Shown piece by piece: positions 1,880 through 17,960 of a stretch of 20,383 bases of DNA (the first letter of the stretch is position 1; each line of letters starts with the position of its first letter). Position numbers and translations under genes: made by a program. A model generated the notes under the pieces. The model did not search any database and was not told where the DNA came from. It saw only the letters and a list, made by a program, of their open reading frames with translations. Origin of the DNA: an uncultured Desulfobacterium sp. (GTDB lineage Bacteria > Desulfobacterota > Desulfobacteria > Desulfobacterales > Desulfobacteraceae); contig CAKZLA010000553.1 of the NCBI GenBank assembly GCA_937124525.1, forward strand, positions 1 through 20,383, read 5' to 3'.

Positions 1880-1898
1880 ATCCCATTTTTAAAATTTG

Positions 1899-1927: not shown

Positions 1928-1933
1928 TAGTTT

Positions 1934-2689: not shown

Positions 2690-2706
2690 GTCTAAAAGGT
2701 GAGATT

Positions 2707-2994
2707 ATGTCAGTATTCTTTTTAGTTCAGATTGAAACAATCTTAGATGAAAATATGTATAGAGAGTACATTGATAAAGCCACTCCTATTATAAAAAAAT
2801 ATGGAGGTGAATATATTCTTCGGTCAGAGAAAATAAACATCTTGACTGGAGATTGGAACCTGAAGCGTATCCTATTAATTCGTTTTGCAAGCAAAGAGAA
2901 AATTCAAGAGTGTTTACAATCGAGTGAATACAGAGATATAGCCCATTTGAGAGAAAATTCTACCACATCTAAAGCAATAATAATTGAGGAATAA
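2707..2994 (+). CDS. DUF1330 domain-containing protein (ferredoxin-like fold)
   Basis: This 95-residue protein fits the DUF1330/dimeric alpha-beta barrel family. Its pattern is FFLVQIETILDENMYREYI, then KATPIIKKYGGEYILRSEK, LLIRFASKEKIQECLQSSEY and a late AIIIEE strand. The family's catalytic role, if any, is unknown. ATG 2707 is chosen because AAAGGTGAG precedes it; an in-frame ATG at 2686 overlaps the attC-3 core and lacks a ribosome site. DUF1330 genes are frequent integron cargo. Here the gene starts 24 bases after the attC-3 core and stops just before attC-4. Confidence 0.75.
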   Translation: MSVFFLVQIETILDENMYREYIDKATPIIKKYGGEYILRSEKINILTGDWNLKRILLIRFASKEKIQECLQSSEYRDIAHLRENSTTSKAIIIEE

Positions 2995-2996
2995 AA

Positions 2997-3064
2997 AGTT
3001 AACCAGTCACCACCGGAGCGTCCGATCTTTTTGGCTACCCACTTAAGGTGTTGGCTGGTTCCAA
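2997..3064 (+). other. degenerate attC-like site 4 / imperfect inverted repeat
   Basis: Directly after the DUF1330 stop, AACCAGTCACCACC (3001-3014) pairs with GGTGTTGGCTGGTT (3047-3060) at 12 of 14 positions. The flanking boxes (AGTTAAC and GTTCCAA) only partly fit attC consensus. The site is exactly where the cassette's attC is expected, so I read it as a decayed attC. It could simply be an unrelated inverted repeat. It also marks the junction with the truncated transporter on the other strand. Confidence 0.35.
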
Positions 3065-3143
3065 AATACCGTTTATCGCCCAAGAACATCGGAGCTGGTT
3101 GACTGAGCATATTCGCAAATGGGATATCGAGATCATCCGACAC

Positions 3144-3329
3144 CCTTATGTGGACATCCGGCCGAGAATCAACAAGAACAAGGACGATTCCCCCAACTAT
3201 TAGCGCCCCGATGGTTTCATAGATCATGGCACTCATGGGGCTGATATATCGAGTGGTGATCTTGGGAATAAATCCCCATAATCCCCAACAAATAAGCGTT
3301 ACAGATGCAGGCAATATCCAGGTCTTCAT
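3144..3329 (-). pseudogene. EamA/DMT-family transporter, N-terminal fragment
   Basis: From an ATG at 3329 with AAGGAGA upstream, about 62 residues match the start of EamA (drug/metabolite transporter) proteins. The first helix contains SVTLICWGLWGF and the second AMIYETIGALIVGGIVLVLV. Full members have ten helices and about 280-300 residues. The resemblance ends near 3144. The frame then stays open to 2904 but runs through the attC-4 region and antisense to the DUF1330 gene, with no transporter character. The gene looks cut by the event that placed the cassette array here. Confidence 0.7.
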
Positions 3330-3519
3330 AATCATTCTCCTTTGACAGAATAAAAACGGGTTGAGCTGTTGAAATCGAGTATAATGAATTATCGTCCCCA
3401 AACCGTCCCTAAAAGGGTCCCAAAAGGCATGGGTTTAAAAAAAAATGATTTTTTTTTATTTTAGTATCTGCTTAATATTCTTAATATGTTTTATTTTCAG
3501 GATATTACAAATTGATTAA

Positions 3520-3621
3520 GTAAGTTCTCAATAAGTTCGGGCATTCAGGGAATCCTTTTGAATAGCACCTGGCGTTTAAAGGGTAAGCAGGTTTTATCAC
3601 CCCAGGTTATTGAGAACTTAC
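3520..3621. mobile_element. MITE-like element with 8-base target duplication
   Basis: GTAAGTTCTCAATAA (3520-3534) and its exact reverse complement (3607-3621) form 15-base terminal inverted repeats around a 72-base core. The core has no reading frame. TTGATTAA flanks both sides directly (3512-3519 and 3622-3629); the duplication could be counted as 9 bases if the G is included. This is the signature of a non-autonomous transposed element. The transposase that moved it is not in the window. Confidence 0.78.
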
Positions 3622-3625
3622 TTGA

Positions 3626-3711
3626 TTAAGACGTTTGAAGTAACCTGAAATTGCAATTTTGCCATGAAAAAGATAAAAACCATGGGGCATACATCCATTT
3701 AAACGTCTTAA
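3626..3711. repeat. inverted repeat next to the MITE
   Basis: TTAAGACGTTT (3626-3636) and AAACGTCTTAA (3701-3711) are exact reverse complements 64 bases apart. The left arm overlaps the right target duplication of the MITE, so the repeat predates or shares the insertion site. No gene lies between the arms. It could be an older element end or a decayed terminator. Confidence 0.4.
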
Positions 3712-4015
3712 ACAAGAACATCTTTTTCCCCTTTCCGGTCTTTCATGTCCAAACGTATCACAGGGGACGAAAAGTCTTCCAAGATTGTTGAAGACTGAAG
3801 AAAATTATGATGCCGTGGCCCTTTTTTTCTCAATCGCCCGGATGGTCAGTCCGGATCTGAAATTGAATGCCCAAAATTTTTCCGGGGTTGCCCGTATCTG
3901 TGGACTAACCGGAGGAATGCCCCTTGCCATCATATTGGCAGCTGGCTGGGCAGATATTTTTCCCCCTGAAAAGATTGCTGATGAAATTCTTAACTTAAAC
4001 GCCTGGATTTTCTAA
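3677..4015 (+). pseudogene. fragment of an AfsR/NB-ARC-like signalling ATPase
   Basis: The frame is open from 3677 (TAA at 3674-3676) to a TAA at 4013-4015. It matches the ARC/winged-helix part of AfsR- and LuxR-type STAND ATPases: EHLFPLSGL, then DAVALFFSIARMVSPD, then ARICGLTGGMPLAIILAAGW and PPEKIADEI. 'GMPLAIxLAA' is the GxP sensor motif of this class. The P-loop, Walker B and C-terminal repeat domains are absent on both sides, and no start codon with a ribosome site is seen. These proteins are usually 700-1200 residues, so this is an isolated internal piece. Confidence 0.72.
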
Positions 4016-4135
4016 GGGCCGGGATTCGGGATTTTCACCTTGCCACAAGAGTATGCAAGCGGTTTTTGATACGTCCTGGAACCGTTAAAAAAATGCTGTC
4101 GTGTTCTTTTTCCAATAAATAAATTTTTATTGCAT

Positions 4136-4585
4136 CTAAAATTTATCTCTATTCATTCTTGAAATCATGCATGTGGCAGTTGCATGTGCGTAGATATTAC
4201 CGTCTTCATCTTTTAATGAGCCTTCAGAGACACCCAGTCGCTTCGAACAATGAATAACCCTTGCTCGTGCCTTTAGCGGGGTGCCCATGGGTAATGGTTT
4301 GAGAAGTTGCACATTGAGATCAATCGTTGCATAATTGTCCCCTGGCCCCAGCATTGTATGCACGGCGCATCCTGTCGCAGAATCCAGTATAGTGGCTGCG
4401 AAGCCTCCGTGGACGGTTCCCATTGGGTTTAAATGATTTTTGTTAGCTTCAGCTTGAAATTCCGCAAGGCCCTTTTCCGCCTCCATCAATTTCATTGGGA
4501 TGGTTACCGCCATAGAGGGTAGCGGAATTTCTCCACTGATGACTTTCCTTAATATCTCCAATCCATTTAGTTGATCAATATTCAT
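4136..4585 (-). CDS. PaaI-family hotdog thioesterase
   Basis: This 149-residue protein belongs to the PaaI/YbdB hotdog thioesterases, which hydrolyse acyl- or aryl-CoA in the cytoplasm. The family signature is clear: NPMGTVHGGFAATILDSATG (residues about 53-72), with the HGG loop at 59-61 and the catalytic acidic residue D68 on the central helix. The later strands YATIDLNVQLLKPLPMGTPL and HATATCMIS complete the fold. Its ATG overlaps the stop of the small upstream ORF by ATGA, so the two are probably translationally coupled. A GlxA-type regulator is divergent, and an acyl-CoA ligase lies 3 kb away. The physiological substrate is not evident from sequence. Confidence 0.88.
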   Translation of the reverse strand: MNIDQLNGLEILRKVISGEIPLPSMAVTIPMKLMEAEKGLAEFQAEANKNHLNPMGTVHGGFAATILDSATGCAVHTMLGPGDNYATIDLNVQLLKPLPMGTPLKARARVIHCSKRLGVSEGSLKDEDGNIYAHATATCMISRMNRDKF

Positions 4586-4758
4586 ATCTGCTCCAAGTTT
4601 TCAGGGGGGGTGGTTTTGAAAAAATCTATCTTCGTCTCTTTTTGCTCGATTTTATAAAAAGTCTTTCTCAACTCCGGGAACTCCAGGAATATATACAAAC
4701 GGTTAGTAAAATCAGCTTTTCTGTAATTTTCAAGAATTTTTTCACATCTTGTGTTCAT
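4582..4758 (-). CDS. 58-residue small protein coupled to the thioesterase
   Basis: An ATG at 4758 with a GAGGGG ribosome site opens a 58-codon frame ending in a TGA that overlaps the thioesterase start (ATGA). The product is charged and soluble: NTRCEKILENYRKADF at the start, then LYIFLEFPELRKTFYKIEQK, then a Pro-rich end. No known domain is recognised. The four-base overlap, its own ribosome site and the promoter-like sequence 39 bases upstream argue that it is real. It could be a subunit, a leader ORF or a regulator of the thioesterase. Confidence 0.6.
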   Translation of the reverse strand: MNTRCEKILENYRKADFTNRLYIFLEFPELRKTFYKIEQKETKIDFFKTTPPENLEQI

Positions 4759-4796
4759 TTCGTTGCCCCCCTCTGTCGTTGTTTACTGATCCCATT

Positions 4797-4824
4797 TCAT
4801 AATTAATTTTGATGGCCTTGTAAA
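4797..4824 (-). promoter_or_regulatory. putative promoter for the small ORF and thioesterase
   Basis: On the minus strand, TTTACA (4824-4819), a 16-base spacer and TTATGA (4802-4797) resemble a sigma70 promoter. It would give a leader of about 30 bases before the ATG at 4758. It is a pattern match only. Confidence 0.38.
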
Positions 4825-4965
4825 AGGTCAGAGTCACATGATTTGACAACAATATGGTGGGTGTGAACACCGTTATTACAGCAATAGAGTGTGGTCAAAA
4901 TTTCATGGGCCAACTTTTTACAGGGGCATCGGTCTTGGTATTAAAATAGCTTTTGATTTATTTGT

Positions 4966-4993
4966 TTTGAAGTGGTAAATACGACATTATAGA
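4966..4993 (+). promoter_or_regulatory. putative promoter of the GlxA-type regulator
   Basis: TTTGAA (4966-4971), a 16-base spacer and TATAGA (4988-4993) lie 28 bases before the ATG at 5022, leaving a short leader that contains GGGAGGTGAG. It shares the divergent intergenic space with the thioesterase promoter, so the regulator could act on both. Confidence 0.42.
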
Positions 4994-5021
4994 GTTGGAT
5001 TGTGCCATTTTGGGAGGTGAG

Positions 5022-6005
5022 ATGAAAAAAGTAACAATACTGGCCATGCAGAACAGCATAGGTTTCTCCATTATCAGCCCCATGGAAGTGTTTTCCCAGG
5101 CAGGGGTGATGTGGAATTATTTTAATGGGCTGGAAATGATGCCCTGCTTTGACGTCAGGTTAGTGACAAGCATCGGCAAACCCTTTAAATGTTTAAACGG
5201 CGTCAGGATGGTGCCGGATGGATCAATTCATGACATAGGGGAGACGGATCTGATTGTGGTGAGTTCCATTATGAATATTGATAAAACCCTTCGTATGCAA
5301 GGAGAGGTTCTTGAATGGTTAAAGGATCGGTATCACGAGGGTTCCCATATTGCCACAGTCTGTTCAGGGGCATTCGTACTGGCGGAAACCGGGTTGCTGG
5401 ATGGTAAAACGGCAACCACCCACTGGGGCTTTGCAGATCAATTCAAAAAGCGGTATCCCCAGATAGAACTCAAACCTGAGCGGTTAATTACAGATGAGGG
5501 GGATCTGTTTTGCTCCGGTGGTTATAGCGCTGGTATGGATCTTTCTCTCTATCTGGTGGAAAAATATTGTGGGCATGAAGTGGCCTTGCAGTCTTCAAAA
5601 TCAATGCTTTTTGACATGGGCCGGACCTCCCAGTCCCCTTATTCCGTGTTTCAGTATAGAAAAGATCACAGAGACGATAAAATTCTTGTAGCCCAAGAGT
5701 GGATTGAGGATCATTTTGATAAGCATTTTAATTATGATGATTTGGCTTGTAAAATTGGTATGAGTCGTCGCACATTGGAACGGCGATTTAAAGCCGCCAC
5801 CGGGGAAACCCCTCTGAGGTATCAACAGACCATTCGGGTTGAGGCCTCCAAACGATTGCTGGAAAAAGGAATGCATTCCTTTGATGAAATTACGTATCTG
5901 GTAGGTTACGAAGACAGCAGTACCTTCCGCAAGATCTTTTCAAAACAGACCGGTTTGGCGCCAACGGAATATCTGAAGAAATTTCAGAGAGTAATCACGG
6001 CATAG
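5022..6005 (+). CDS. GlxA-family AraC transcriptional regulator with DJ-1/PfpI domain
   Basis: This 327-residue protein has two parts. Residues about 1-190 form a DJ-1/PfpI-like (class I amidotransferase-like) domain with the nucleophile-elbow Cys in HIATVCSGAFVLAETGLLDG followed by ATTHWG, as in GlxA proteins. Residues about 225-325 are an AraC double helix-turn-helix (LACKIGMSRRTLERRFKAAT, then EITYLVGYEDSSTFRKIFSK). Such proteins sense small metabolites, often amino-acid or betaine related, and activate nearby genes. ATG 5022 is chosen for its excellent GGGAGGTGAG site; an in-frame TTG at 4995 lacks one. It is divergent from the small ORF-thioesterase pair, the most likely target. Confidence 0.88.
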   Translation: MKKVTILAMQNSIGFSIISPMEVFSQAGVMWNYFNGLEMMPCFDVRLVTSIGKPFKCLNGVRMVPDGSIHDIGETDLIVVSSIMNIDKTLRMQGEVLEWLKDRYHEGSHIATVCSGAFVLAETGLLDGKTATTHWGFADQFKKRYPQIELKPERLITDEGDLFCSGGYSAGMDLSLYLVEKYCGHEVALQSSKSMLFDMGRTSQSPYSVFQYRKDHRDDKILVAQEWIEDHFDKHFNYDDLACKIGMSRRTLERRFKAATGETPLRYQQTIRVEASKRLLEKGMHSFDEITYLVGYEDSSTFRKIFSKQTGLAPTEYLKKFQRVITA

Positions 6006-6150
6006 CCATCCGGTATTTCGGCTCAGGAATCAGGATGCAGACCGGCATCCGGGTGTGCCGGGAAGCTGGCCGATTCGTGCTGTCAGGTGTTTTACTATTT
6101 TTAAAATATGGCTTTGGAAAATGCTGGACTGATTTTCCGGCGACTGTCCG

Positions 6151-6195
6151 AAAAAACCGGGGATAACGTCCATGCATCGTTATCCCCGGTTTTTT
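6151..6195. terminator. strong bidirectional intrinsic terminator
   Basis: CCGGGGATAACG (6157-6168) and CGTTATCCCCGG (6178-6189) form a perfect 12-base stem with a 9-base loop. A-run 6151-6156 and T-run 6190-6195 flank it, giving U-tracts in both directions. It can end transcription from the GlxA-type regulator (stop at 6005) and anything arriving on the minus strand. Confidence 0.88.
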
Positions 6196-6202
6196 GGAAT
6201 TT

Positions 6203-6271
6203 TTATTTGGCGAGAACACCCTTGCTGATGGTATTTCCCGGGGTCAGGGGCTTGGTCATAACGTCGGCCAT
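6203..6271 (-). CDS. possible 22-residue peptide or fossil C-terminus
   Basis: On the minus strand an ATG at 6271 opens 22 codons that start M-A-D-V-M-T-K-P-L-T-P-G and end in V-L-A-K with a TAA, eight bases before the terminator. The frame is open upstream to 6298 without another start, and no clear ribosome site is present. The first residues coincide with the dispersed repeat, whose copy at 532 preserves the same reading frame. It may be the tail of a lost gene rather than a functional peptide. Confidence 0.28.
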   Translation of the reverse strand: MADVMTKPLTPGNTISKGVLAK

Positions 6272-6292
6272 TTTGTAATGGAATTTTAATGG
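6251..6292. repeat. dispersed short repeat, copy 2
   Basis: This copy matches 532-573 at 34 of 42 positions with only transitions. The possible plus-strand hairpin is preserved by paired changes: CCATT-TTGT-AATGG here versus CCAC-CTT-GTGG in copy 1. Minus-strand codons are also conserved, so the selection, if any, could act on RNA or peptide. Confidence 0.7.
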
Positions 6293-6720
6293 TAAGAATT
6301 AAATTCAGTTATTACAGTGGCTTGCGATGAGTAGAGTTTTGTGTCCCGCATAGTGACCCAGCTTATGACCAACCCCAAATCGCTGCACCGGACGGCACCT
6401 CGCCTTGCTCATTTGCCGTCTGTTAGCCTTTAACCGAGGCGGACACCGGATACAGAGCATTTATTTCAGGGCGTGGGCACCCGCGCTTTTTGGCAGACTC
6501 CACCGCATTCCATGTCACAACGCATTAAGTTTCTTCTTAATGTCCATATGATCCTCCTTTAAAGCCATATAATCCATTTAATATTACAAATATGTGACTC
6601 TATAAAAACAAATTGTAATGTTTTTTGGATAAACGGGCGTAAATTTTATTAGGCTTTTTAAAGCGGAACAGAAAATAGTGAAAAGCAGAAAAATAAGTGG
6701 TGGATATTTATTTTTAATGG
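6293..6720. other. long intergenic region with possible gene remnant
   Basis: No convincing gene is seen. On the minus strand an ATG at 6547 has a near-perfect ribosome site (AAAGGAGG, 6 bases away). It reads only MDIKKKLNAL before a TGA at 6515-6517. The next frame continues for about 30 codons, suggesting a frameshifted remnant running toward the fragment at 6271. The 6560-6720 stretch is AT-rich and gene-free. Confidence 0.35.
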
Positions 6721-6743
6721 TAAACATTGTTTATTTGTTGACA
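6721..6743 (+). promoter_or_regulatory. palindromic operator-like site plus -35 box upstream of the acyl-CoA ligase
   Basis: TAAACATTGTTTA (6721-6733) is a perfect 13-base palindrome. A consensus -35 TTGACA follows at 6738-6743. A good -10 box is not obvious at the expected distance (TGCTGT at 6761). A dimeric regulator could bind the palindrome. The leader to the ATG at 6900 would be about 130 bases. Confidence 0.35.
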
Positions 6744-6899
6744 TAGGAGTTAAATTTGAGTGCTGTTAATTTATTGCAAATAGTTAGGTCAAAATAGGCA
6801 ATTGGATATTTATTACGATTTTTTAGTGGATCGCTAAATTTATAAAAATAATCTGCCGGATGAATAAACTCTGGCCCAATAACTTAGGGAGAATATTGA

Positions 6900-8696
6900 A
6901 TGCTGACATTGGAAACCCCGGTCAATCTGGTGGAACTTTTTGAAAATGGTGTTCGAAAATTTAAAGATAATCCATTTTTTGGGCTGAAAAACGAATCTAA
7001 AACCGAACTTAACTGGATGACATACGGGGATGTGGGCCAGCGCGTTGATAATCTCAGGGGCGGCCTGGTACACAAAGGCATCGGCAAAAATCATGTGGTC
7101 GGTTTCATCGGAAACAACCGGCCTGAATGGGCAATTTGCGCTTTTGCAACATACGGTACTGGTGCCCGTTTTGTCCCCATGTACGAGGCGGAGCTGGAAA
7201 GCACCTGGGAATATATTATCAAAGACAGTGGCGTTAAACTGTTAATGGTCTCTAAACCTGAAATCTATGAAAAAGTAATCAAACTTACCGAAATTATTCC
7301 TGCTCTTGAGCATGTTTTTGTCATTGAAACCAATGGTGAAAACTCAATGGCCGAACTGGAAATCATTGGTAAAAAAAATCCGGTGCCGTCTGTAAAGCCG
7401 GAAATAAACGACATCGCCGCTTTGATTTATACTTCTGGAACCACGGGTGATCCCAAAGGTGTGCTGCTGTCCCACGGGAATTTTACCTCCAATGCCGTGG
7501 GCGGCAACCGGATCTATAAAGATATTTTAAATGAAAATGCCCGCAGTATTTCTATTCTTCCCTGGGCACATTCATACGGCCAGACGGCTGAACTATATAA
7601 CTGGATGCTGGTGGGCGGTTCCATTGGATTTATGGAATCCGTGGCCACGCTGGGGAATGATCTGGCGCTGATCAAGCCCACATTTATGATTGCAGTGCCC
7701 CGGGTGTTTAATAAAATTTATGATGGTTTGTGGACAAAAATGAATGAAACCGGAGGGGCGGCCAAGGCTTTGTTTGAAATGGGCGTAAACAGCGCCAAGA
7801 AGAAGCGGGAACTGGCAGCAGAATGCAAGTCCAGTTTTATGGTTAACTTAAAGGTCGCACTGGCAGATAAAATCGTGTTTAAAAAAATCCGGGACAAATT
7901 TGGCGGCAGATTAGAAGGGGCACTCACTGCCAGCGCCCTGATGAATGTCGACATTTCAAATTTCTTTACCGACATCGGAATTCCCGTGTTTGACTGTTAC
8001 GGATTGAGTGAAACCTCTCCGGCGGTGAGCATGAATTGTTTTTCCGCTTTTAAGACCGGCAGCGTTGGCCGACCCGTCGACGATGTTAAGGTTGTCATTG
8101 ATCAATCCGTTGTGGAAGATGGCAGTGATGACGGCGAAATTGTTGTCTACGGTCCCAACGTCATGCAAGGGTATCACAACAAGCCGGAAGACACCCGGGC
8201 AACCATGACCGCCGACGGCGGTTTTAAAACAGGAGATCGGGGCCGGATTGATGAAGATGGTTATCTTTTTATTACTGGCCGGATCAAGGAGCAATATAAG
8301 CTGCAAAACGGGAAATACGTTTTCCCGGGTGCCATTGAAGAAGACATTCGCCTGCTGCCAAATGTGGCCAATGCCATGCTGTCTGGTGAAGGCAAAGGTT
8401 ACAATGTCTGCCTGATCATTCCCGATTTTGAAGTCCTAACCCAATACGCTGAACAAAATGACCTGCCAACTGATCCAGAGCAGCTGATTGAAAACGAGCA
8501 GGTAAAAAATATGATCTCCGCTGAAATCATTGCATCCTTGAAAAATAAATACGGCGGATACGAAATCCCTAAAAAATTTATTTTTATCGCTGAAGACTTC
8601 TCCATTGAGAACAGCATGCTCACTCAAACCATGAAATTAAAACGGCGGGTGGTATTTGAAAAGTATAATCAGGCAATTGAAAATTTGTATAAATAG
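6900..8696 (+). CDS. long-chain acyl-CoA ligase (AMP-dependent synthetase)
   Basis: This 598-residue enzyme is of the ANL superfamily, long-chain acyl-CoA synthetase type. It activates a fatty acid with ATP to an acyl-adenylate and then forms the CoA thioester. Landmarks are the P-loop YTSGTTGDPKG (177-187), the A5 motif YGLSETSP (367-374), TGDRGRID (444-451) and the hinge/A8 segment GRIKEQYKLQNGKYVFP (460-476). The A10 region is LTQTMKLKRR with the probable catalytic Lys at 579. 'KEQYKLQNGKYV' is characteristic of eukaryote-like ACSL enzymes rather than E. coli FadD. GGGAGA lies eight bases before the ATG. The gene is monocistronic between a terminator and a long gap. Benzoate or other aryl acids as substrate are less likely given the ACSL features. 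Confidence 0.9.
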   Translation: MLTLETPVNLVELFENGVRKFKDNPFFGLKNESKTELNWMTYGDVGQRVDNLRGGLVHKGIGKNHVVGFIGNNRPEWAICAFATYGTGARFVPMYEAELESTWEYIIKDSGVKLLMVSKPEIYEKVIKLTEIIPALEHVFVIETNGENSMAELEIIGKKNPVPSVKPEINDIAALIYTSGTTGDPKGVLLSHGNFTSNAVGGNRIYKDILNENARSISILPWAHSYGQTAELYNWMLVGGSIGFMESVATLGNDLALIKPTFMIAVPRVFNKIYDGLWTKMNETGGAAKALFEMGVNSAKKKRELAAECKSSFMVNLKVALADKIVFKKIRDKFGGRLEGALTASALMNVDISNFFTDIGIPVFDCYGLSETSPAVSMNCFSAFKTGSVGRPVDDVKVVIDQSVVEDGSDDGEIVVYGPNVMQGYHNKPEDTRATMTADGGFKTGDRGRIDEDGYLFITGRIKEQYKLQNGKYVFPGAIEEDIRLLPNVANAMLSGEGKGYNVCLIIPDFEVLTQYAEQNDLPTDPEQLIENEQVKNMISAEIIASLKNKYGGYEIPKKFIFIAEDFSIENSMLTQTMKLKRRVVFEKYNQAIENLYK

Positions 8697-9042
8697 ATAG
8701 GATCGTAAGACGCTTTTTGTCAAGAAGAGCATAAAAAGCAGGGTTTGATCACAAGCCTGACTCCGTGCTCCAGCAATCCTGATGAGTGGCGATGTTATGA
8801 TAAAGCCCAAAGATCTTATGTGTCATTATTGTGATGACAAAGACATGTGATCATGTGGCTTTTTAACTTTTAACCGAGAACTCCCCCTTCCAAATTTTTG
8901 ATTTGGTGGGGGATGACTCTGTGATTCAGGAAGAGAACATTCACTAAGATATGACGCTACTTGTGAAGCCCCCACCCTTTATTGATTGTCAAAATAACAA
9001 CTGCAAAAAAAATGCCATGTAATAAAGAAAAATATTTGATCC
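8697..9042. other. intergenic region after the ligase, with one strong hairpin
   Basis: No gene is seen. The main structure is a hairpin: TCCCCC (8882-8887) with CCAAAT (8890-8895) pairs with ATTTGG (8901-8906) and GGGGGA (8908-8913), interrupted by a small bulge. It lacks a T-run, so a Rho-independent terminator is uncertain. It may be an RNA processing or protein-binding element. Confidence 0.4.
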
Positions 9043-9070
9043 TTGACTTTATTCCATATTCCTATACCCT
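9043..9070 (+). promoter_or_regulatory. putative promoter of the CDP-alcohol operon
   Basis: TTGACT (9043-9048), a 16-base spacer and TACCCT (9065-9070) resemble a sigma70 promoter. It would produce a leader of nearly 190 bases before the first gene at 9266. No better candidate is seen closer to the gene. Confidence 0.35.
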
Positions 9071-9079
9071 ATTAATAGT

Positions 9080-9150
9080 CGTACAGATATAAAGGGTACG
9101 CAAGATTTCCCTCTTAAGGTGTATATCCCCGATACGCAAATGCGGTTTGC
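9080..9150 (+). promoter_or_regulatory. structured leader upstream of the CDP-alcohol operon
   Basis: Three short stems follow one another: CGTAC/GTACG (9080-9084 with 9096-9100), GTAT/ATAC (9121-9124 with 9132-9135) and GCAAA/TTTGC (9136-9140 with 9146-9150). They do not fit a riboswitch class I recognise. The leader could regulate the operon, but the stems are short. Confidence 0.25.
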
Positions 9151-9265
9151 CCCCCAAAGTTAGAAACCTTTATTTTTAAAAAAAACTGTCAATCGCCCAA
9201 GAAATTTCATCTTGAAAATAGATGTTTATTTTTTGCGTCCATTAATTGTTAATATTAGGAGGCCC

Positions 9266-10123
9266 ATGAAACCAGAAAAGAAATCCTATCCCCAAAAACG
9301 CATCACAACCGCTCTGCTGCTGGCTGCCGGTACAGGAAGTCGTCTGCTCCCCCTTACAAAAAAATCACCCAAATGCCTCACCCTTGTGAATGAAACCTCC
9401 ATATTGGAACGGTTAATCAAAAGCCTGAATCAAAATGGTTTTAAACGACTGGTTGTGGTTACCGGTCACCTGGAAGACTGTATTCGTAATTTTCTGAAAA
9501 CCCGGGCAGGTAATCTTACCATTGAGTATGTTTTCAGTCCGTTATACAAAACAACAAATAATATATACTCCCTGTGGATGGCCAGAGACATTATTAATGA
9601 ACCTTTTTTGCTCATTGAAAGTGATCTTGTTTTTGATTCGTCTTTATTAAAGGATATGCGTTATCCTGACAGGATCGCCATCGCAAAGATGCAGCCGTGG
9701 CTCAATGGCTCAACGGTAACAATCGATCCATCCAACACCATTAATGCCTTTCATAGTGGTGGGATAGAAGGGCCTGGCTCGACTCGTTACAAGACGGTAA
9801 ATATATACAGTCTTTCCGTTTCCTCCTGGTATCTGGTGATTGAAAAATTGAATCAATTTATCCTGGCCGGTAAAGTTAATGAATATTATGAAACGGTGTT
9901 CAGGCAATTGGTCATTGAAAAAAAACTTTCCCTTGATGCGGTCTTTTTTGACAATAAGCCATGGTATGAAATTGACACCGCAGAAGATCTTGCATCCGCC
10001 GAAAGGCTGTTTCCATCAAAGGTGCGTCTGCCCTTTAATATTTTAGGTTCAAATTATTTGAAAAAAACAGATCGGCCTGTACGGAAAAAAGTTTTACAGG
10101 GAGGTCTTTATGCCCACTCCTGA
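9266..10123 (+). CDS. LicC-like cytidylyltransferase (NTP transferase)
   Basis: This 285-residue nucleotidyltransferase has the CTP-binding signature AAGTGSRLLPLTKKSPKCL (20-38), with Lys36 likely binding phosphate. The segment TTNNIYSLWMARD (96-108) is typical of phosphocholine cytidylyltransferases such as LicC. ESD (118-120) supplies the metal-binding Asp, and WYEIDTAEDL near the end supplies a second. The expected reaction is CTP plus an alcohol phosphate (choline, ethanolamine or related) to CDP-alcohol. ATG 9266 follows AGGAGG; an in-frame TTG upstream at 9212 lacks a site. It overlaps the next gene by 14 bases, so the proteins are probably made together. The exact phosphate substrate cannot be read from sequence; a sugar-phosphate remains possible. 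Confidence 0.82.
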   Translation: MKPEKKSYPQKRITTALLLAAGTGSRLLPLTKKSPKCLTLVNETSILERLIKSLNQNGFKRLVVVTGHLEDCIRNFLKTRAGNLTIEYVFSPLYKTTNNIYSLWMARDIINEPFLLIESDLVFDSSLLKDMRYPDRIAIAKMQPWLNGSTVTIDPSNTINAFHSGGIEGPGSTRYKTVNIYSLSVSSWYLVIEKLNQFILAGKVNEYYETVFRQLVIEKKLSLDAVFFDNKPWYEIDTAEDLASAERLFPSKVRLPFNILGSNYLKKTDRPVRKKVLQGGLYAHS

Positions 10124-11213
10124 GTACAATAACCCGGCGGAAAAATATAACTATATCTCAGGTCAGCATGGTGGATATTATCGCCACGATTTTATTGATC
10201 ATGCATATTTATATAACCTTTATTTTCCGCCGGAAGAGGTGTTTACCTGTTTTAAAAATAAAATTCATGATCTTGTTCTGAACTACCCGGTTGCCCAGGA
10301 TGTCCTGGCCAATCTGGTGGGTAACCTTATTGATCAGCCGCCAGAGCGCATTGTTGTTGGTAATGGTGCGGCAGAACTTATCAAAATCGTCTCAGGGCAG
10401 ATTTCAAATAGACTCATTGTGCCGGTGCCGTCATTTAATGAATATGTGAACGCCGCACCCCAGGGCCGCGCCATGGAGTTTCCCCTTGAATGGCCCTCTT
10501 TCCAGCTGGATGTAGACAAATTCGCAGCCCATGCCATTAAAGCCAACGCAGATGTTGCGGTTGTGGTCACACCGAACAATCCAACCTCCATGGCCGTTCC
10601 AAAACAGGATTTGGTGTGCTTGGCAGAGGCATTGGCCGATCATGACTGTCTGCTGATTATTGATGAGTCCTTTATTGATTTTACTAAGGACCCGGATCAA
10701 TTTTCAATGGAAGATGAGATTGAGCAGTATCCCAATATCGTCATTTTTAAAAGCATGAGCAAGGCATATGGTATCTGTGGCATTCGAATTGGATATCTGG
10801 TTACAACCAATCTCAAATTTGCCAATGCGGTTCGTAAGGGTGTTCATATCTGGAATATTAATGGCTTTGCAGAAGAGTTCTTAAGAATTCTGCCTGATTT
10901 TCATGGGGAATTTATTAAAAGCTGCAACCAGGTTAAAAAAGATCGGGATAAACTTTATGAAAGTTTGAACGCTTTTTCTCCGCTTACGGTTTATAAGCCA
11001 GACGCAAATTTCATTTTTTGCCGTCTGCCCGACGACGGGCTGAATGCGCCCCAATTGACAGAAAAATTATTTGTTGACCATAATATATATATCAAACACT
11101 GCCAGGGTAAAACCATGCCCCATGGAGATCAATTTGTCCGTATCGCCTCCCGGACTGAACAAGAAAACACTAATCTGGTGGATGCCCTGGCATCTATCCT
11201 TGGGTATAAATAG
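10110..11213 (+). CDS. PLP-dependent aminotransferase-fold enzyme, HisC/CobD-like
   Basis: This 367-residue fold-type I enzyme belongs to aminotransferase class I/II. Visible landmarks are VVVTPNNPTS (151-160, Asn157 near the cofactor), LLIIDESFIDF (181-191, Asp185 to the pyridine nitrogen), SMSKAYGICGIRIGYL with Schiff-base Lys218 and Arg226, and FVRIAS (342-347, Arg344 for substrate carboxylate). HisC and CobD share this architecture, and both handle phosphorylated amino compounds. HisC transaminates histidinol phosphate; CobD decarboxylates threonine phosphate. Sitting between a cytidylyltransferase and a CDP-alcohol phosphotransferase, it probably makes or consumes the phosphorylated amino-alcohol headgroup. 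It has a strong GGGAGG site inside the preceding gene. A histidine-biosynthesis role is unlikely, since no his genes are near. Confidence 0.83.
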   Translation: MPTPEYNNPAEKYNYISGQHGGYYRHDFIDHAYLYNLYFPPEEVFTCFKNKIHDLVLNYPVAQDVLANLVGNLIDQPPERIVVGNGAAELIKIVSGQISNRLIVPVPSFNEYVNAAPQGRAMEFPLEWPSFQLDVDKFAAHAIKANADVAVVVTPNNPTSMAVPKQDLVCLAEALADHDCLLIIDESFIDFTKDPDQFSMEDEIEQYPNIVIFKSMSKAYGICGIRIGYLVTTNLKFANAVRKGVHIWNINGFAEEFLRILPDFHGEFIKSCNQVKKDRDKLYESLNAFSPLTVYKPDANFIFCRLPDDGLNAPQLTEKLFVDHNIYIKHCQGKTMPHGDQFVRIASRTEQENTNLVDALASILGYK

Positions 11214-11220
11214 CGAGCTC

Positions 11221-11865
11221 ATGATGAACAAAACACCATATCAACCGTCACATCACACCAGCATGCTCTGGTTTGCCAAAGATCTTCCAAATATCTGTTC
11301 CCTTGCAGGGCTTTTGTGTGCGCTTTTAGGGATTTATTTTGCCATTCTACAACATTTTTCCATTGCCGTCATTGCAATGATCTGGGCCGTCCTTTTTGAC
11401 TGGGGAGACGGCATTATCGCTCGAAACATGACCGGCAGAACGGAAAAACAAGGAGAATTTGGAGGGCAGCTGGACTCGTTGATCGATATGGTGAGTTTTG
11501 GCATCTGCCCGGCTGTTTTTCTTTTAAGTTATGGGCAGTTCAGTGGGTGGTATTTGCCGGGTGCCTTTGTGATTGTTGCCACCAGTGCCATACGACTTAG
11601 TTATTTTAATGTATTCGGTCTTGTGGACAACTCAACTTACAAGGGGCTTGCACTGGACAACAATGTTATTTTATTCGCATTTGTTTTTCTGTTTGAGGGG
11701 GTTTTCAGCCCTGGCATTTTTCCCATCATACTCTATGCAATGTTCATGATCATGGCGGGCTTTAACTTGTCATCCTTGCGTACACCAAAATTTTCCGGCG
11801 TTTGGTTTTATGTTCTTGTGGGGTATACGGTGATACTGACACTCATTTACAGTTTTATTCTTTAA
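11221..11865 (+). CDS. CDP-alcohol phosphatidyltransferase, PssA-like
   Basis: This 214-residue integral membrane enzyme carries the family motif with four acidic residues: D60-x2-D63-G64-x2-A67-R68, then G81-x3-D85-x3-D89. The spacer between AR and G is 12 residues instead of the usual 8-9. GGQLDSLIDMVSFGICPAVF closely resembles phosphatidylserine synthase (PssA). Several hydrophobic helices follow (for example 101-125, 145-175, 190-214). The reaction displaces CMP from a CDP-alcohol onto a second alcohol, or the reverse choice of donor. ATG 11221 is seven bases past the previous stop; the site is weak, suggesting coupled translation. Context makes the upstream CDP-alcohol product its likely donor. 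Confidence 0.87.
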   Translation: MMNKTPYQPSHHTSMLWFAKDLPNICSLAGLLCALLGIYFAILQHFSIAVIAMIWAVLFDWGDGIIARNMTGRTEKQGEFGGQLDSLIDMVSFGICPAVFLLSYGQFSGWYLPGAFVIVATSAIRLSYFNVFGLVDNSTYKGLALDNNVILFAFVFLFEGVFSPGIFPIILYAMFMIMAGFNLSSLRTPKFSGVWFYVLVGYTVILTLIYSFIL

Positions 11866-13847: not shown

Positions 13848-14206
13848 GGGCAGGCATCCCTTTTGTTGAAAATTATTTTTGGGTCGGTGGTAATAGACGT
13901 CGTGTTAAGAAGTTATCCCCATTTGATACGCACCAGGGGGGGGAGTTGCTCTTTTCTCCCATGGCATATCTTTTCCATGAGCAAGTCTCATAATAGTACA
14001 GTGAGAACCAATTATCAAAGAAAAAGTGGTATTCTTCATTTGCCAGTTTACTAAGTTTAAAAGCAGATAATGAAAACTCTCATGTGTCATTACTGAAAAT
14101 GGGAATGCGTCCTTGACAAGTTCAATGAAAATCTGTTTTGATATCTTTTTTAATTTGATGATCAAGTTTCCATTATTTAATGACGCAACCAGGGAGAATG
14201 AGGCAC
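13848..14206. other. intergenic region without a convincing gene
   Basis: The stretch is AT-rich with a G-run at 13936-13942. I see no RNA gene or credible promoter pair. An 86-codon minus-strand frame starts with TTG and has no family resemblance or ribosome site, so it is left out. Confidence 0.45.
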
Positions 14207-15127
14207 ATGGGGAAAAATCCGATGAAAAAAAAAGTAACTAAATGGATTAAAAAAGGAAAAGATCCCAGGAGTGCCCATTGGCAAGCAGCCCTTGAGGCCA
14301 CATTAAAACTTTTTGCCCCAGATCTGGAACCTGGGCGACTCATTCCCATGGGCCCCCTGGAGGACGAGGACATTCTTGTTTTTGAGAAAGCCCTGGCCGT
14401 TGTGGACTTGAGCCCCAATGTCTCTGCTGCATTTATTCCACCGCTTCTTGCTGGTAAACTGACTCCCCCCGACACGGTGGAGGAACTCCATCGCATAGTC
14501 AAAGGGGCACCGTCGTATCAGATTCTTATTTCCAGGCCGGGAAAAGAGGTGAGAATTTTATCTGTCGAGATTTCCGAACATGCCATCCGTCCCGGTGTGG
14601 ATCTTTTCCAGTCCGGCGCATTTCTGGGTAACTATGACTTTGAAAACCAGTCTGATTGTCTGGATAGCCTTAAAAAAATCATCCGGGCACATATGTGGAA
14701 ATCAGAAAAATGGACCCGGGAAGACCATATTGCATACACCTTGAACTGGTTTGAAAAGGTGAGAGAGCTCAACAGTGCCACCGTGGCAGTGGAAAATGAT
14801 TTTTCCTTTTTCCACAGCCCCACCCTGATAAAGAGCTCTAAAATGGATGCCATGTTTACCTTGATGACGGAAGATCTTCTCAAAAGAGGAAAAGATAAAG
14901 ATGATCCCTTTGGTCAAATTTTTTCATCCATGGCCAGGGCAGGGGGGGAGAGCCAGGAGTTCCCTTTGCTGGGCCAGACCATTGAAGATGGGATGCTCGG
15001 ACAGTTGAATCTTATGAGATCTTTGGATCTTGTCAGCTTCAGCGATTTTACAAATGCCCAGAGTGAACAGTTTAAAAAGGGATTTTCAGAGACCGTGCGC
15101 TATCTGGAAGGTAAGTTGTTTTCGTAA
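14207..15127 (+). CDS. hypothetical protein, about 306 aa
   Basis: I do not recognise a family. The protein starts with a basic stretch (KKKVTKWIKKGKDPRSAHWQ). It continues with a mixed alpha/beta region (EDEDILVFEKALAVVDLSPN) and a charged C-terminal half (DDPFGQIFSSMARAGGESQE, then EGKLFS at the end). No signal peptide or transmembrane helix is visible. GGGAGA lies eleven bases before the ATG at 14207; an in-frame ATG at 14180 has no site. The gene converges with the kinase at 15219. Codon use resembles the neighbours, so it is likely native. Confidence 0.7.
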   Translation: MGKNPMKKKVTKWIKKGKDPRSAHWQAALEATLKLFAPDLEPGRLIPMGPLEDEDILVFEKALAVVDLSPNVSAAFIPPLLAGKLTPPDTVEELHRIVKGAPSYQILISRPGKEVRILSVEISEHAIRPGVDLFQSGAFLGNYDFENQSDCLDSLKKIIRAHMWKSEKWTREDHIAYTLNWFEKVRELNSATVAVENDFSFFHSPTLIKSSKMDAMFTLMTEDLLKRGKDKDDPFGQIFSSMARAGGESQEFPLLGQTIEDGMLGQLNLMRSLDLVSFSDFTNAQSEQFKKGFSETVRYLEGKLFS

Positions 15128-15218: not shown

Positions 15219-17960
15219 TCAGCGCAATGCGGTTTTAATTTTTTTTGACAACTCCCCCAGTGTGAACGGTTTTTGGATAAAGCCCCGGCCGCCCTGCCTT
15301 AGAATTTCAGCCACCTGAAGGTTCAGACTGTACCCACTTGCCAGCAATACCCTGATCTTGGGATTGAGTTTTTTTAAGTGACTGAAGGTTTCTTCACCAT
15401 CCATTTCCGGCATGATCATGTCTATGATCACCAGATCAATGTCGTTGTGGTGGGTGCGATAAATTTCAAGGGCATCTTTTCCGTTTTCAGCGGTAAATAA
15501 TTGATATCCCAATCGTTCCAGCATCTGTTGTCCCACCTCCAGTATGCTTTTTTCGTCATCCACCAGAAGGATGGAGCCCTCACCAGAGACAACGCTGATG
15601 CTCCCCTGGGAAGATGCCGGAGAAACGCTATTCTTGGGGGTGGCTGGCAAATAGATGTCAAACGTGCTCCCCTTGCCCTTTTCACTGACCAGGCAGATAA
15701 ACCCTCCATGTTTTTTGATAATCCCGTAAACCGAAGCCAGCCCCAGGCCGGTTCCCTGGCCAGGGGGCTTGGTGGTGAAAAAAGGATCAAAAATTTTACT
15801 GGCGGTCTCTTTATCCATGCCGGTTCCCGTATCTGTCACTGAAATGATGGTATAGTCACCACAGGGTATTTCTGTATCGCCGCCGTTTTCCATGTGGGAG
15901 GGGCTCTCTTTTGTTATGGTTTTATTGGTGGTTTGAACATAGATATCCCCCCCCCGGTCCATGGCCTGCCAGGCATTGACATACAGGTTGAGTAAAACCT
16001 GCTGGATCTGCCCCTGATCCACTGTTACAGTCCATAGATTTTTATCAAAGAATTCATGGATACGAATTTCTTTTCGAGTTTCGCCGAACATTCGGTTTTC
16101 CTGGGCAATGAGTGTATTGAGATTTGTGGGCGTGGTCTTATATTCTCCCCCCCGGGCAAAGGCCAGGAGTTGACGGGTCAGTCTTACAGCCCGTTGGACG
16201 GCACCTTCAATGCTTGTCAGATGCTTGATGTCTTTATGGGTTGGGGGTTTATCCATTTTTATCAAGGATACCCGGCCCTGGATGTTCATAAGAATGTTAT
16301 TAAAATTATGGGCAATTCCCCCGGCAAGGGTGCCGATGGATTCCATCTTCTGGGCCTGGTGAAGCTTTGTTTCCAGTTGGATTTTATTTGCTGCAAAGGC
16401 TTTCAGATCGGTTATATCCCGGCCTTCGGGAATGAGAAAGGCGATTTTCCCTTCTTCATCCAGCACCGGTTTGATGGAAAAATCAATGACTCGGATATCT
16501 CCTGTGTGGGAGGGGTGGGTTGCTTCAAATCGGGTAAACTGACCCAGTGCAGCCCGTTCAACGCTTTTTTTTGCTTTTTTCTGCATTTGGGGGTCATGGA
16601 CCCACCAGGGAGTTTCCCAGAAATAGCGGTCTATCACATCTTCAGCACGGCATCCCACAAAGGTTGTGGCGGTTTCATTGATGGACTTTATCTTTCCCTC
16701 CGGGGTTAAAATAGCTGTCAATTGAAAAGATTGGTTGAAAAGTGCCATGAGTTTTAACTCACTTTTTTTCAGGGCAGCCTGGGTTCTCAGCTGTTTTTGG
16801 ATTTCTTTTTCGATTTGTATATGGTTTTTTTCCAGCCGATCCATGAAATCATTGAAATATTGGGACAGCTTGCCCAGTTCATTGGGCTGATGGTAATCCA
16901 TGCGAATGGAATAATTGCCCCTGGCCCCCAACTCCAATTGTGCCATGAGGATTTGCAGGGGGTGGGTGATAGAGGTACTGATGAGAAAGGTAAACAAAAT
17001 GGCCAATGCAAAAATAATTATCAGCATGATAAATAGCAGATGAAACATGTCTGTAAGGGGGGCTTCCATCTCTTTTACATAGCTGGAAGATGCCACAAAC
17101 CACTCATACTCTGGAAGATAATCAAAAAAAATAATTTTTTCCCGGGGCTCACTGTCATTGGGGTTTTGCCAGAAATATTTAAAGTTGCCTTTTTTGTTCT
17201 CCAGGATGCGGGAAAAAATTTTGTTGGAATATTCATTATGATCCAGCATGTTTTTTCCCTGGAACCAGGGATGAAGCAGAAGATCTCCTTTTGAATTTAA
17301 AACATAAGCATAGCCGGAGTCCCCAAATTTGTAGGAGAGCACACTTTTCTTGAAATCCTCTATTTTCACCAGGTCCTTGAATTCTTCTCTGTAGCTGGAT
17401 ACAGAGATGATCCAGTCCAGGGGCTTGAAATAGCACATGTACAATGCCTTGGGCCGTTTTTCCATTTTTTCGGGGTTTTTCCATTCGTATTCGATGTAGC
17501 CATCTTTGAGTTCAATTTGCTTTTTTGCAAGTTTATAATGACCCACATTAGTGCCTTGAAGTTTGTCATTGGGGTGCATCAACATATCTGCATCGCTGTT
17601 CAGACAAAAAATGTACCCGCTGAGGCCAATGCGCTGGCTCATGAATGTCTCTTCAATGATGTTGTAAGCTTGTTGCCGGGTGAGCAAGCCGGAACGGTAT
17701 TTGTTATAGTAGTACTCTGCAATGTCCAGATTTTTTTCCGCAATGGCCCGAAGCCGGTTTCTGATGGACACCGCCGCCGCCGTTTTGATCAGTTGGGTCA
17801 GGGATGCTGTTGTGTTTTCAAGCTCTCTTTCATAACTTTTTCTCAACAGGTTTTGAACCTGATGATAGGACATGGTGGTTCCCACCAATGTAAGGGGAAC
17901 AAACAGCAGAATAAAGGAGATCAGCAGTTGATTTCTAATTTTAAATTTTTTGATAAACAT
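15219..17960 (-). CDS. hybrid sensor histidine kinase (double Cache, HAMP, PAS, HisKA, HATPase, receiver)
   Basis: This 913-residue protein runs in order. TM1 is at about 11-30, and two periplasmic single-Cache-like modules at about 85-195 and 205-300 both contain GxSGYxFxLNS-type segments. TM2 is at about 305-330, HAMP near 331-385, and a PAS domain (415-515) follows. The HisKA H-box GGIAHNFNNIL places phospho-His at 551. The ATPase domain has N658/N662, DTGTG (710-714) and GTGLGLA (736-742). The C-terminal receiver has D801/D802, phospho-acceptor D847 and K897. It would sense an extracellular small molecule and phosphorylate its own receiver. The residue after His is Asn where Asp/Glu is usual. 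No separate response regulator is adjacent. Confidence 0.93.
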   Translation of the reverse strand: MFIKKFKIRNQLLISFILLFVPLTLVGTTMSYHQVQNLLRKSYERELENTTASLTQLIKTAAAVSIRNRLRAIAEKNLDIAEYYYNKYRSGLLTRQQAYNIIEETFMSQRIGLSGYIFCLNSDADMLMHPNDKLQGTNVGHYKLAKKQIELKDGYIEYEWKNPEKMEKRPKALYMCYFKPLDWIISVSSYREEFKDLVKIEDFKKSVLSYKFGDSGYAYVLNSKGDLLLHPWFQGKNMLDHNEYSNKIFSRILENKKGNFKYFWQNPNDSEPREKIIFFDYLPEYEWFVASSSYVKEMEAPLTDMFHLLFIMLIIIFALAILFTFLISTSITHPLQILMAQLELGARGNYSIRMDYHQPNELGKLSQYFNDFMDRLEKNHIQIEKEIQKQLRTQAALKKSELKLMALFNQSFQLTAILTPEGKIKSINETATTFVGCRAEDVIDRYFWETPWWVHDPQMQKKAKKSVERAALGQFTRFEATHPSHTGDIRVIDFSIKPVLDEEGKIAFLIPEGRDITDLKAFAANKIQLETKLHQAQKMESIGTLAGGIAHNFNNILMNIQGRVSLIKMDKPPTHKDIKHLTSIEGAVQRAVRLTRQLLAFARGGEYKTTPTNLNTLIAQENRMFGETRKEIRIHEFFDKNLWTVTVDQGQIQQVLLNLYVNAWQAMDRGGDIYVQTTNKTITKESPSHMENGGDTEIPCGDYTIISVTDTGTGMDKETASKIFDPFFTTKPPGQGTGLGLASVYGIIKKHGGFICLVSEKGKGSTFDIYLPATPKNSVSPASSQGSISVVSGEGSILLVDDEKSILEVGQQMLERLGYQLFTAENGKDALEIYRTHHNDIDLVIIDMIMPEMDGEETFSHLKKLNPKIRVLLASGYSLNLQVAEILRQGGRGFIQKPFTLGELSKKIKTALR

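What the first reader, a model, noticed from the sequence alone, without database searches (positions are those of the whole stretch)
9043..11865. Three-gene operon for a possible new CDP-amino-alcohol lipid pathway
A LicC-like cytidylyltransferase, a HisC/CobD-like PLP enzyme and a PssA-like CDP-alcohol transferase overlap or nearly touch. Known chemistry suggests making an amino-alcohol phosphate from a phospho-amino acid (CobD-like decarboxylation) or by transamination, activating it with CTP, and moving it to a lipid. This would be a Kennedy-like route without the usual kinases. The order and coupling are seen; the substrate is inference.
Basis: partly seen in the sequence, partly recalled or inferred. 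Interest (0 to 1): 0.78.

Follow-up and report, generated by a model that had tools for sequence, protein, structure and literature searches.

The report
Kinase-free CDP-amino-alcohol gene cassette
Three touching genes, found together in many bacteria and some archaea, look like a self-contained route that turns a phospho-amino acid into a CTP-activated amino alcohol and passes it to a second molecule, which is probably small and soluble rather than a membrane lipid.

Summary
CT (LicC/PntC-like cytidylyltransferase, 9266-10123), PLP (CobD/HisC-like, 10110-11213) and CAP (PssA-like CDP-alcohol transferase, 11221-11865) form a tight operon. The trio recurs in the same order and strand in 70 of 79 fetched relatives, bacteria and archaea, at 56-93% identity.

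PLP groups with SMUL_1544, a decarboxylase, apart from CobD and HisC. CT has Glu where the aminoethylphosphonate enzyme PntC contacts the amine; choline-specific LicC has Asp. PEP mutase is over cut-off in 1 of 29 trio genomes, so a phosphonate is unlikely. Phosphoserine to phosphoethanolamine to CDP-ethanolamine is the simplest reading.

The lipid ending is weak. 23 of 29 trio genomes have a PS decarboxylase. CAP keeps the PS-synthase serine site but has an invariant Asp near the lipid end of the donor site. In 22 loci a fourth gene follows CAP: an ATP-grasp ligase or a SAM methyltransferase. Distant relatives sit in phosphonate and small-molecule clusters on plasmids. I favour a soluble phosphodiester such as serine-phosphoethanolamine. 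Substrate and product are inferred; nothing was assayed.

The parts
9257..9262 (+). Shine-Dalgarno-like AGGAGG, 3 nt upstream of the CT start ATG 9266 (short spacing)
   Evidence: sequence
9266..10123 (+). CT: LicC/PntC-type cytidylyltransferase; E118 and E209 are predicted amine contacts, D120 a predicted metal ligand
   Evidence: Pfam NTP_transferase 5.2e-10; best PDB LicC 1jyk 6e-15, Tde-PntC 6pd1 8e-14; E118, D120 and E209 in 77 of 77 family members
10110..11213 (+). PLP: fold-type I PLP enzyme, predicted O-phosphoserine decarboxylase (predicted PLP lysine K218)
   Evidence: Best NCBIfam CobD TIGR01140 174.2 bits, below the cut-off of 290.55; best PDB 6oux = SMUL_1544 decarboxylase; tree clade 100/97 with 6oux
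11221..11865 (+). CAP: PssA-like CDP-alcohol transferase; motif D59, D62, D84, D88; serine-site S85 and F128; trio-specific R72, Y127, D145-N146-N147 (numbered from ATG 11224)
   Evidence: Pfam CDP-OH_P_transf 6.5e-13; AF2 model pLDDT 87.2, best PDB match MjPSS 7b1k/7pow; column counts

Best explanation
The trio is a self-contained, kinase-free route to a phosphodiester of an amino alcohol. Step 1 (inferred, about 0.75): PLP decarboxylates O-phospho-L-serine to ethanolamine phosphate. Step 2 (inferred, about 0.65): CT joins it to CMP from CTP, giving CDP-ethanolamine. Step 3 (inferred, about 0.55 for 'not a membrane lipid', about 0.35 for 'serine'): CAP, a relative of phosphatidylserine synthase, moves phosphoethanolamine onto a soluble serine-like acceptor, giving L-serine-phosphoethanolamine or a close relative. 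In some carriers a fourth enzyme then ligates an amino acid to it or methylates it. What is shown: the operon, its conservation, the family placements, the residues and the fourth genes. No reaction was shown.
For: Trio in 70 of 79 loci, same order and strand, bacteria and archaea. PLP in a 100/97 clade with 6oux (SMUL_1544) and three CT-PLP fusions, apart from 10 CobD-like and 6 HisC-like proteins of trio genomes; NCBI names a 31% relative 'norcobamide biosynthesis serine-O-phosphate decarboxylase'. 20 of 29 trio genomes hold a separate CobD-like protein of 250 bits or more. CT E118 aligns with Tde-PntC E104; MAFFT pairs E209 with the LicC Asp that I number D192; both are Glu in 77 of 77. Glu there goes with a pocket for an unmethylated amine (PMC6697681 section 8). 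Fused CT-PLP proteins lie near LicD or Glyphos_transf genes in 3 of 3 chromosomal loci read, L126, L127, L132. On three rhizobial plasmids a PLP relative stands in one cluster with aepX and CT, with no phosphonopyruvate decarboxylase in the (incomplete) gene table, which fits decarboxylation of the phosphoserine analogue phosphonoalanine. CAP keeps MjPSS serine-site residues D84, S85, D88, F128 (72 of 72) but has D145 in 72 of 72 where 21 of 21 PssA of trio genomes have P or T. An ATP-grasp ligase-like gene or a methyltransferase follows CAP in 22 loci.
Against: I found no assay of any member of the trio family. CobD and HisC models score the PLP protein within 30 bits of each other, and sequence alone does not tell decarboxylase from transaminase. 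The PLP AF2 model is poor (pLDDT 68.6), so its fold match adds little beyond sequence; 6oux is a long branch in the tree. HMMER and MAFFT pair E118 with an Ala of LicC, one residue off its Asp-Ala-Asp, so the LicC side rests on the paper, and HMMER's 1-bit alignment pairs E209 with another Asp. CAP lies in the membrane and its nearest named relatives make lipids. The serine-site residues could be kept for another reason. A methyltransferase after CAP would also fit PE-to-PC methylation. The window itself has no fourth gene, nor do 38 of the 59 loci with room for one. Why the organisms would need serine-phosphoethanolamine is not known.
Confidence: 0.42

Rival explanations
1. One reading: phosphoserine to phosphoethanolamine to CDP-ethanolamine, then CAP transfers it to diacylglycerol (bacteria) or archaeol (archaea), giving PE or archaetidylethanolamine by a Kennedy-like route.
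For: CAP is a membrane CDP-alcohol transferase closest to archaetidylserine synthase and PssA models and to the PSS structure; 6 of 29 trio genomes, three of them labelled Spirochaetes, show no PS decarboxylase; a methyltransferase after CAP could make PC.
Against: PS decarboxylase in 23 of 29 trio genomes, beside a PssA in 14. Archaeal CAPs (68-76% to the window) fall inside the bacterial range, although the free lipid acceptors would have opposite stereochemistry (recalled). An ATP-grasp ligase as fourth gene does not fit. D145-N146-N147 lies near where PssA meets the lipid end of its donor.
Confidence: 0.22
2. PLP is a transaminase (for example dihydroxyacetone phosphate to serinol phosphate, like Cj1437), and the trio makes CDP-serinol or another CDP-amino alcohol for the same kind of transfer.
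For: HisC model 145.8 bits, close to CobD; Cj1437 makes serinol phosphate (PMC12409886 passages); CT only requires an amine.
Against: The closest structure and clade is a decarboxylase; two of the three aepX clusters carry a separate aspartate-aminotransferase-like protein besides the PLP relative.
Confidence: 0.15
3. PLP decarboxylates O-phosphothreonine and the activated alcohol is (R)-1-amino-2-propanol phosphate.
For: Best NCBIfam is Thr-phosphate decarboxylase CobD.
Against: Below the curated cut-off; groups with the SMUL_1544 enzyme; 20 of 29 trio genomes have a separate CobD-like protein; phosphothreonine needs its own kinase (recalled).
Confidence: 0.1
4. Phosphonate route: the trio handles 2-aminoethylphosphonate, as PntC does.
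For: CT has a PntC-type glutamate; rhizobial relatives sit with PEP mutase.
Against: PEP mutase over cut-off in 1 of 29 trio genomes, on another contig than the trio and in one stretch with a CT-PLP fusion; two more genomes match only below the cut-off; none among the window genes scanned.
Confidence: 0.05

Closest known systems
Pnt phosphonate tailoring (PntC, Rice et al. 2019, PMC6697681)
   Same: LicC-family cytidylyltransferase coupled to a PLP enzyme; Glu amine contact; CMP-activated amino compound
   Different: No PEP mutase over cut-off in 28 of 29 trio genomes; class I/II CobD-like PLP enzyme instead of the class V AEP transaminase; PssA-like transferase instead of LicD
Kennedy pathway / lic operon
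   Same: CDP-amino alcohol as donor; cytidylyltransferase then transferase
   Different: No kinase or uptake gene linked; the phospho-alcohol is predicted to come from a PLP enzyme; CAP is PssA-like, not CEPT- or LicD-like
SMUL_1544 (L-serine O-phosphate decarboxylase of norcobamide synthesis)
   Same: Closest solved PLP protein; proposed to supply ethanolamine phosphate (PMC4585668 passages)
   Different: About 27-28% identity in the fold match; a Sulfurospirillum relative at 31% sits in a cobamide operon, not with CT and CAP
Phosphatidylserine synthase PssA / MjPSS (PMC8633023)
   Same: Same fold; CDP-AP motif; serine-site D, S, D, F
   Different: R104 becomes Y127, P119-A120-G121 becomes D145-N146-N147, extra R72; about 27-39% identity to PssA of trio genomes
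Campylobacter Cj1436/Cj1437 (PMC12409886 passages)
   Same: Enzymes that make ethanolamine phosphate (from serine phosphate) or serinol phosphate without a kinase
   Different: The phospho-alcohol is used directly for an amide bond in a capsule, with no CDP activation

Membership tests
CobD (TIGR01140, Thr-phosphate decarboxylase) | score over curated cut-off 290.55 bits | tested here: not met
   174.2 bits
HisC (TIGR01141) | score over curated cut-off 276.55 bits | tested here: not met
   145.8 bits
SMUL_1544-type Ser-phosphate decarboxylase | phylogenetic grouping | tested here: met
   100/97 clade of 15 rows: 6oux, 3 fusions, 11 trio; 6oux is a long branch
SMUL_1544-type Ser-phosphate decarboxylase | activity on O-phosphoserine | not testable with these tools
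   needs an assay
PntC/LicC cytidylyltransferase | sequence family | tested here: met
   1jyk 6e-15, 6pd1 8e-14
PntC (AEP-preferring) | Glu at the Tde-PntC E104 position | tested here: met
   E118, ungapped alignment with 6pd1; 77 of 77
PntC (AEP-preferring) | Glu at the Tde-PntC E196 / LicC D192 position | tested here: inconclusive
   E209 in 77 of 77 lines up with a LicC Asp by a YYE/YWD motif, but HMMER's 1-bit alignment differs and no Tde-PntC row reaches there
Pnt pathway | PEP mutase in the genome | tested here: not met
   1 of 29 trio genomes over cut-off, 3 of 29 at E <= 0.001; the window's own genome is not held
PssA (TIGR00473) | score over curated cut-off 107 bits | tested here: not met
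   62.7 bits
Archaetidylserine synthase (NF038087) | score over curated cut-off 240 bits | tested here: not met
   86.1 bits, the best NCBIfam match of CAP
PssA | serine-site residues of MjPSS (D62, S63, D66, F105) | tested here: met
   D84, S85, D88, F128 in 72 of 72
Kennedy pathway | transfer of CDP-amino alcohol to a lipid alcohol | not testable with these tools
   needs an assay
Kennedy / lic pathway | choline or ethanolamine kinase linked to the cassette | tested here: not met
   the only other neighbour families in 4 or more of 79 loci were an ATP-grasp-like protein, a methyltransferase and a metallophosphoesterase; kinases elsewhere in the genomes were not searched for

The most novel reading that the evidence does not exclude
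A previously undescribed family of soluble zwitterionic phosphodiesters (serine-phosphoethanolamine and its amino-acid-ligated or methylated derivatives), made by a mobile three- or four-gene cassette shared between diverse bacteria and methanogenic archaea. It could serve as an osmolyte, phosphorus store or signal.
Probability: 0.33. Interest if true: 0.86.

Novelty: new variant of a known kind. Interest (0 to 1): 0.72.

Why it matters
If right, cells have a kinase-free way to CDP-ethanolamine that starts from a core metabolite, and a PssA relative that makes a soluble product instead of a lipid. The cassette crosses the bacteria-archaea boundary at about 62-76% identity, which is unexpected for a lipid pathway and suggests a small molecule useful in any cytoplasm. 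Every step can be tested with three small proteins and mostly commercial substrates. Database names seen for such proteins, such as 'histidinol-phosphate transaminase' and 'CDP-alcohol phosphatidyltransferase family protein', now hide it.

Tried and rejected
Phosphonate route: rejected for the trio because PEP mutase is over cut-off in 1 of 29 genomes, though it fits rhizobial relatives. Cobamide role: rejected because the neighbour clustering shows no cobamide gene family and a separate CobD-like protein of 250 bits or more stands in 20 of 29 genomes. Known RNA: no Rfam match over gathering score in the window. Promoter and terminator scans: 13 promoter-like sites against 8.5 +/- 2.5 in shuffles, 3 terminator-like against 3.9 +/- 2.2, not informative. 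Virus link: no relative of PLP confirmed in viral contigs, single-sequence query. PLP structure model: pLDDT 68.6, TM about 0.46 to 6oux, used only as weak support. Ten paper searches showed no description of the trio in their listings; the last, aimed at it, returned no paper. They cover open-licence PMC papers only. Not done: habitat statistics (the handles carry no environment), the neighbourhoods of 19 of the 33 plasmid records, and a search of the rhizobial DNA for a phosphonopyruvate decarboxylase.
Full report
WHAT IS THERE. In the window, CT (9266-10123), PLP (10110-11213) and CAP (11221-11865) are co-directional. CT and PLP overlap by 14 nt, and CAP starts 7 nt after PLP. Families: NTP_transferase, Aminotran_1_2, CDP-OH_P_transf. 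Neighbours look unrelated: an AMP-binding enzyme upstream at 6900-8696 and a tautomerase downstream at 12103. The window's genome is not held.

CONSERVATION. A scan of one genome per species with the PLP alignment gave 192 relatives, of which the best 80 (79 loci) were kept. Identity to the window by tblastn: CT 56-90% (leaving out L015, cut by a contig end; no CT in L031 and L051), PLP 64-91%, CAP 56-93%. All three genes, same strand and order, stand in 70 of 79, in four of these with one gene cut by the contig end. Of the 9 others, 7 are cut by contig ends (L015, L019, L031, L039, L043, L046, L051). L018 and L028 have another gene after PLP, in L028 a class-III aminotransferase by Pfam; L018's genome has a CAP elsewhere. 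L020 holds two trios in tandem. Record titles name Deltaproteobacteria and Desulfobacterales, Methanosarcinaceae, Bacteroidetes, Spirochaetes, Chloroflexi, Calditrichota, Planctomycetota and others. Most are MAGs and may be mis-binned, but L025 (Methanococcoides seepicolus strain LLY) and L078 (Carboxylicivirga sp. M1479) are not labelled MAG.

PATCHINESS. In 185 genomes of the order of G009, 21 matched A1 at E <= 1e-80; in 297 of the phylum of G002, 3 matched, the centre included. All listed hits were 711 bits or more, so nothing fell between these and the threshold. In 296 genomes of the phylum of G029, searched with a CT-PLP fusion at E <= 1e-20 (four candidates scored per genome), 45 matched; apart from G029 itself only one, G174, matched along the whole fusion. 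The pattern suggests transfer of a cassette.

PLP ENZYME. Best NCBIfam is CobD at 174.2 bits (cut-off 290.55), then HisC at 145.8. The best solved relative by sequence and by fold is 6oux, titled 'Structure of SMUL_1544, a decarboxylase'; the PLP model itself is poor. In a 33-row tree, 6oux, three CT-PLP fusions and 11 trio PLPs form a clade (100/97) apart from 10 CobD-like and 6 HisC-like proteins of trio genomes and Salmonella CobD; several branches are long, and 3ftb joins with weak support. SMUL_1544 was proposed to make ethanolamine phosphate (PMC4585668 passages); its biochemical proof is in papers I could not read (recalled; not held). NCBI names a 31% relative 'norcobamide biosynthesis serine-O-phosphate decarboxylase'. 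The 11 trio PLPs in the tree share the HGG N-terminal motif with 9 of the 10 CobD-like rows, and K329 stands where all 10 CobD-like rows, Salmonella CobD and 6oux have Arg. 20 of 29 trio genomes have another CobD-like protein of 250 bits or more.

CYTIDYLYLTRANSFERASE. Best solved relatives are LicC (6e-15) and Tde-PntC (8e-14). PntC has Glu104 and Glu196 near the AEP amine where LicC has Asp105 and Asp192, with a smaller pocket that discriminates against choline (PMC6697681 section 8 read). Window 'LIESDLVFDS' aligns without gaps with Tde-PntC 'LLESDLIYDS', so E118 = E104. Against LicC the programs pair E118 with the Ala of Asp-Ala-Asp, one residue off, so the LicC side rests on the paper. 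MAFFT pairs E209 with a LicC Asp that I number D192 (YYE/YWD motif); HMMER's 1-bit alignment pairs it with another Asp. E118, D120 and E209 are invariant in 77 of 77 trio CTs. This predicts an unmethylated amino-alcohol phosphate.

CDP-ALCOHOL TRANSFERASE. Best NCBIfam models are archaetidylserine synthase (NF038087, 86.1 bits, cut-off 240); PssA scores 62.7 (cut-off 107). The CAP model (pLDDT 87.2) matches MjPSS best (E 8.6e-7), then weakly PIP synthases and AF2299. Against 21 PssA of trio genomes, the CDP-AP motif and the MjPSS serine-site residues (D62, S63, D66, F105 in PMC8633023, passages and section 8) are shared: D84, S85, D88 and F128, 72 of 72 each. Differences: R72 and Y127 (72 of 72), D145 (72 of 72), N146 (70 of 72), N147 (72 of 72). 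PssA have P or T at 145 in 21 of 21, A, V, M or S at 146 in 21 of 21, and at 147 A or G in 15 of 21 and N in 1. By the alignment these three positions correspond to MjPSS 119-121, which I place at the N-terminus of helix 5; the paper names that end of helix 5 as a contact of CDP-DAG and helix 5 side chains as lining the alkyl channel. The placement and the reading 'polar donor end' are mine. Nine CAPs next to PLP relatives on plasmids share R72 (9 of 9), but only one keeps S85.

NOT THE USUAL LIPID ROUTE. PS decarboxylase is present in 23 of 29 trio genomes and PssA over cut-off in 19 of 31; in 14 genomes the two lie side by side by coordinates. So many carriers searched can make PE or archaetidylethanolamine without the trio. 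Three of the six genomes without PS decarboxylase are labelled Spirochaetes; there a PE role stays open, though incomplete MAGs could explain the absence.

FOURTH GENES. Clustering of all ORFs gave only three further families in 4 or more loci, with 11, 11 and 7 of 79. Two sit directly after CAP. Family A (11 loci, L031 only a fragment; archaea and bacteria; 59-69% identity to the first of nine aligned members) has no Pfam hit in the member scanned at E <= 0.001, but ATP-grasp_3 matches weakly in 9 of 9 members and its best relatives are amino-acid ligases: PDB ATP-grasp peptide ligase 4.6e-6, NCBIfam LdmS 6.9e-9 and BesA 5.7e-7, far below their cut-offs. Family B is a SAM methyltransferase in 11 loci (Pfam on the L060 copy): L048 is split over two ORFs, L060 lies on the other strand, L062 is cut by the contig end. 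Among the 59 loci with at least 1300 bp after CAP, 11 carry A (L031's fragment included) and 10 carry B; none carries both as whole genes, and 38 carry neither. Short family A stretches remain behind CAP in L016, L020 and L047, which suggests loss. The window has neither. Ligases of this class join free amino acids (recalled), which fits a soluble amino-acid-like product better than a lipid.

WIDER FAMILY. A search with the fusion L126 scored 7998 candidates, all at E <= 1e-30 (capped); all 120 listed carry both domains. The three fusions whose chromosomal surroundings I read lie near LicD (L127, L132) or Glyphos_transf (L126, L127) genes, transferases that take CDP-activated head groups. The one PEP mutase over cut-off among trio genomes (G020) lies in the L126 stretch, about 12 kb from the fusion and on another contig than its trio. 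On plasmids 33 records match PLP. Of 14 read, 9 list a CDP-alcohol transferase and 3 list aepX; the two aepX proteins scanned pass the PEP mutase cut-off. Several sit with asnB, methyltransferases, ATP-grasp enzymes or ABC transporters, as in small-molecule clusters. Of 10 PLP proteins scanned there, 2 gave a Pfam nucleotidyltransferase hit in their N-terminal part. The plasmid gene table is incomplete.

VERDICT. Operon and CDP-amino-alcohol logic: well supported. Kinase-free CDP-ethanolamine from phosphoserine: the simplest reading. Lipid product: unproven and less likely than a soluble phosphodiester. Serine-phosphoethanolamine is known from animals as the product of CDP-ethanolamine plus serine (recalled); the one search aimed at it listed 10 of 56 papers, none of which was about it in prokaryotes by title.

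Noticed in passing
L164 (Priestia megaterium pBM700), 1802-9906: CT-PLP fusion with two ATP-grasp genes and an AAC(3)-family acetyltransferase beside a plasmid-borne DXP reductoisomerase gene; looks like a small-molecule cluster with a self-resistance copy.
   Followed up: partly
L168, L170, L171, L174 (rhizobial plasmids): CDP-alcohol transferase, methyl- or formyltransferase, asnB and a PLP protein with a long N-terminal part, next to ABC transporter genes: opine-like cluster.
   Followed up: partly
L018 6301-6906, L028 9070-10903: CT-PLP followed by a class-III aminotransferase (Pfam in L028); in L028 a further gene follows that looked like a dehydrogenase by eye but has no Pfam hit.
   Followed up: partly
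L003, L004, L006, L010, L011, L049, L075: A conserved metallophosphoesterase family near the trio in 7 loci.
   Followed up: partly
window 1934-2522: BrnT/BrnA-like toxin-antitoxin pair; the BrnT match is below Pfam's cut-off.
   Followed up: no
window 14180-15127: 315-aa protein with no Pfam or NCBIfam match at E <= 0.001.
   Followed up: no
window 15219-17960 (-): Cache-HAMP-PAS histidine kinase with a C-terminal receiver domain.
   Followed up: no
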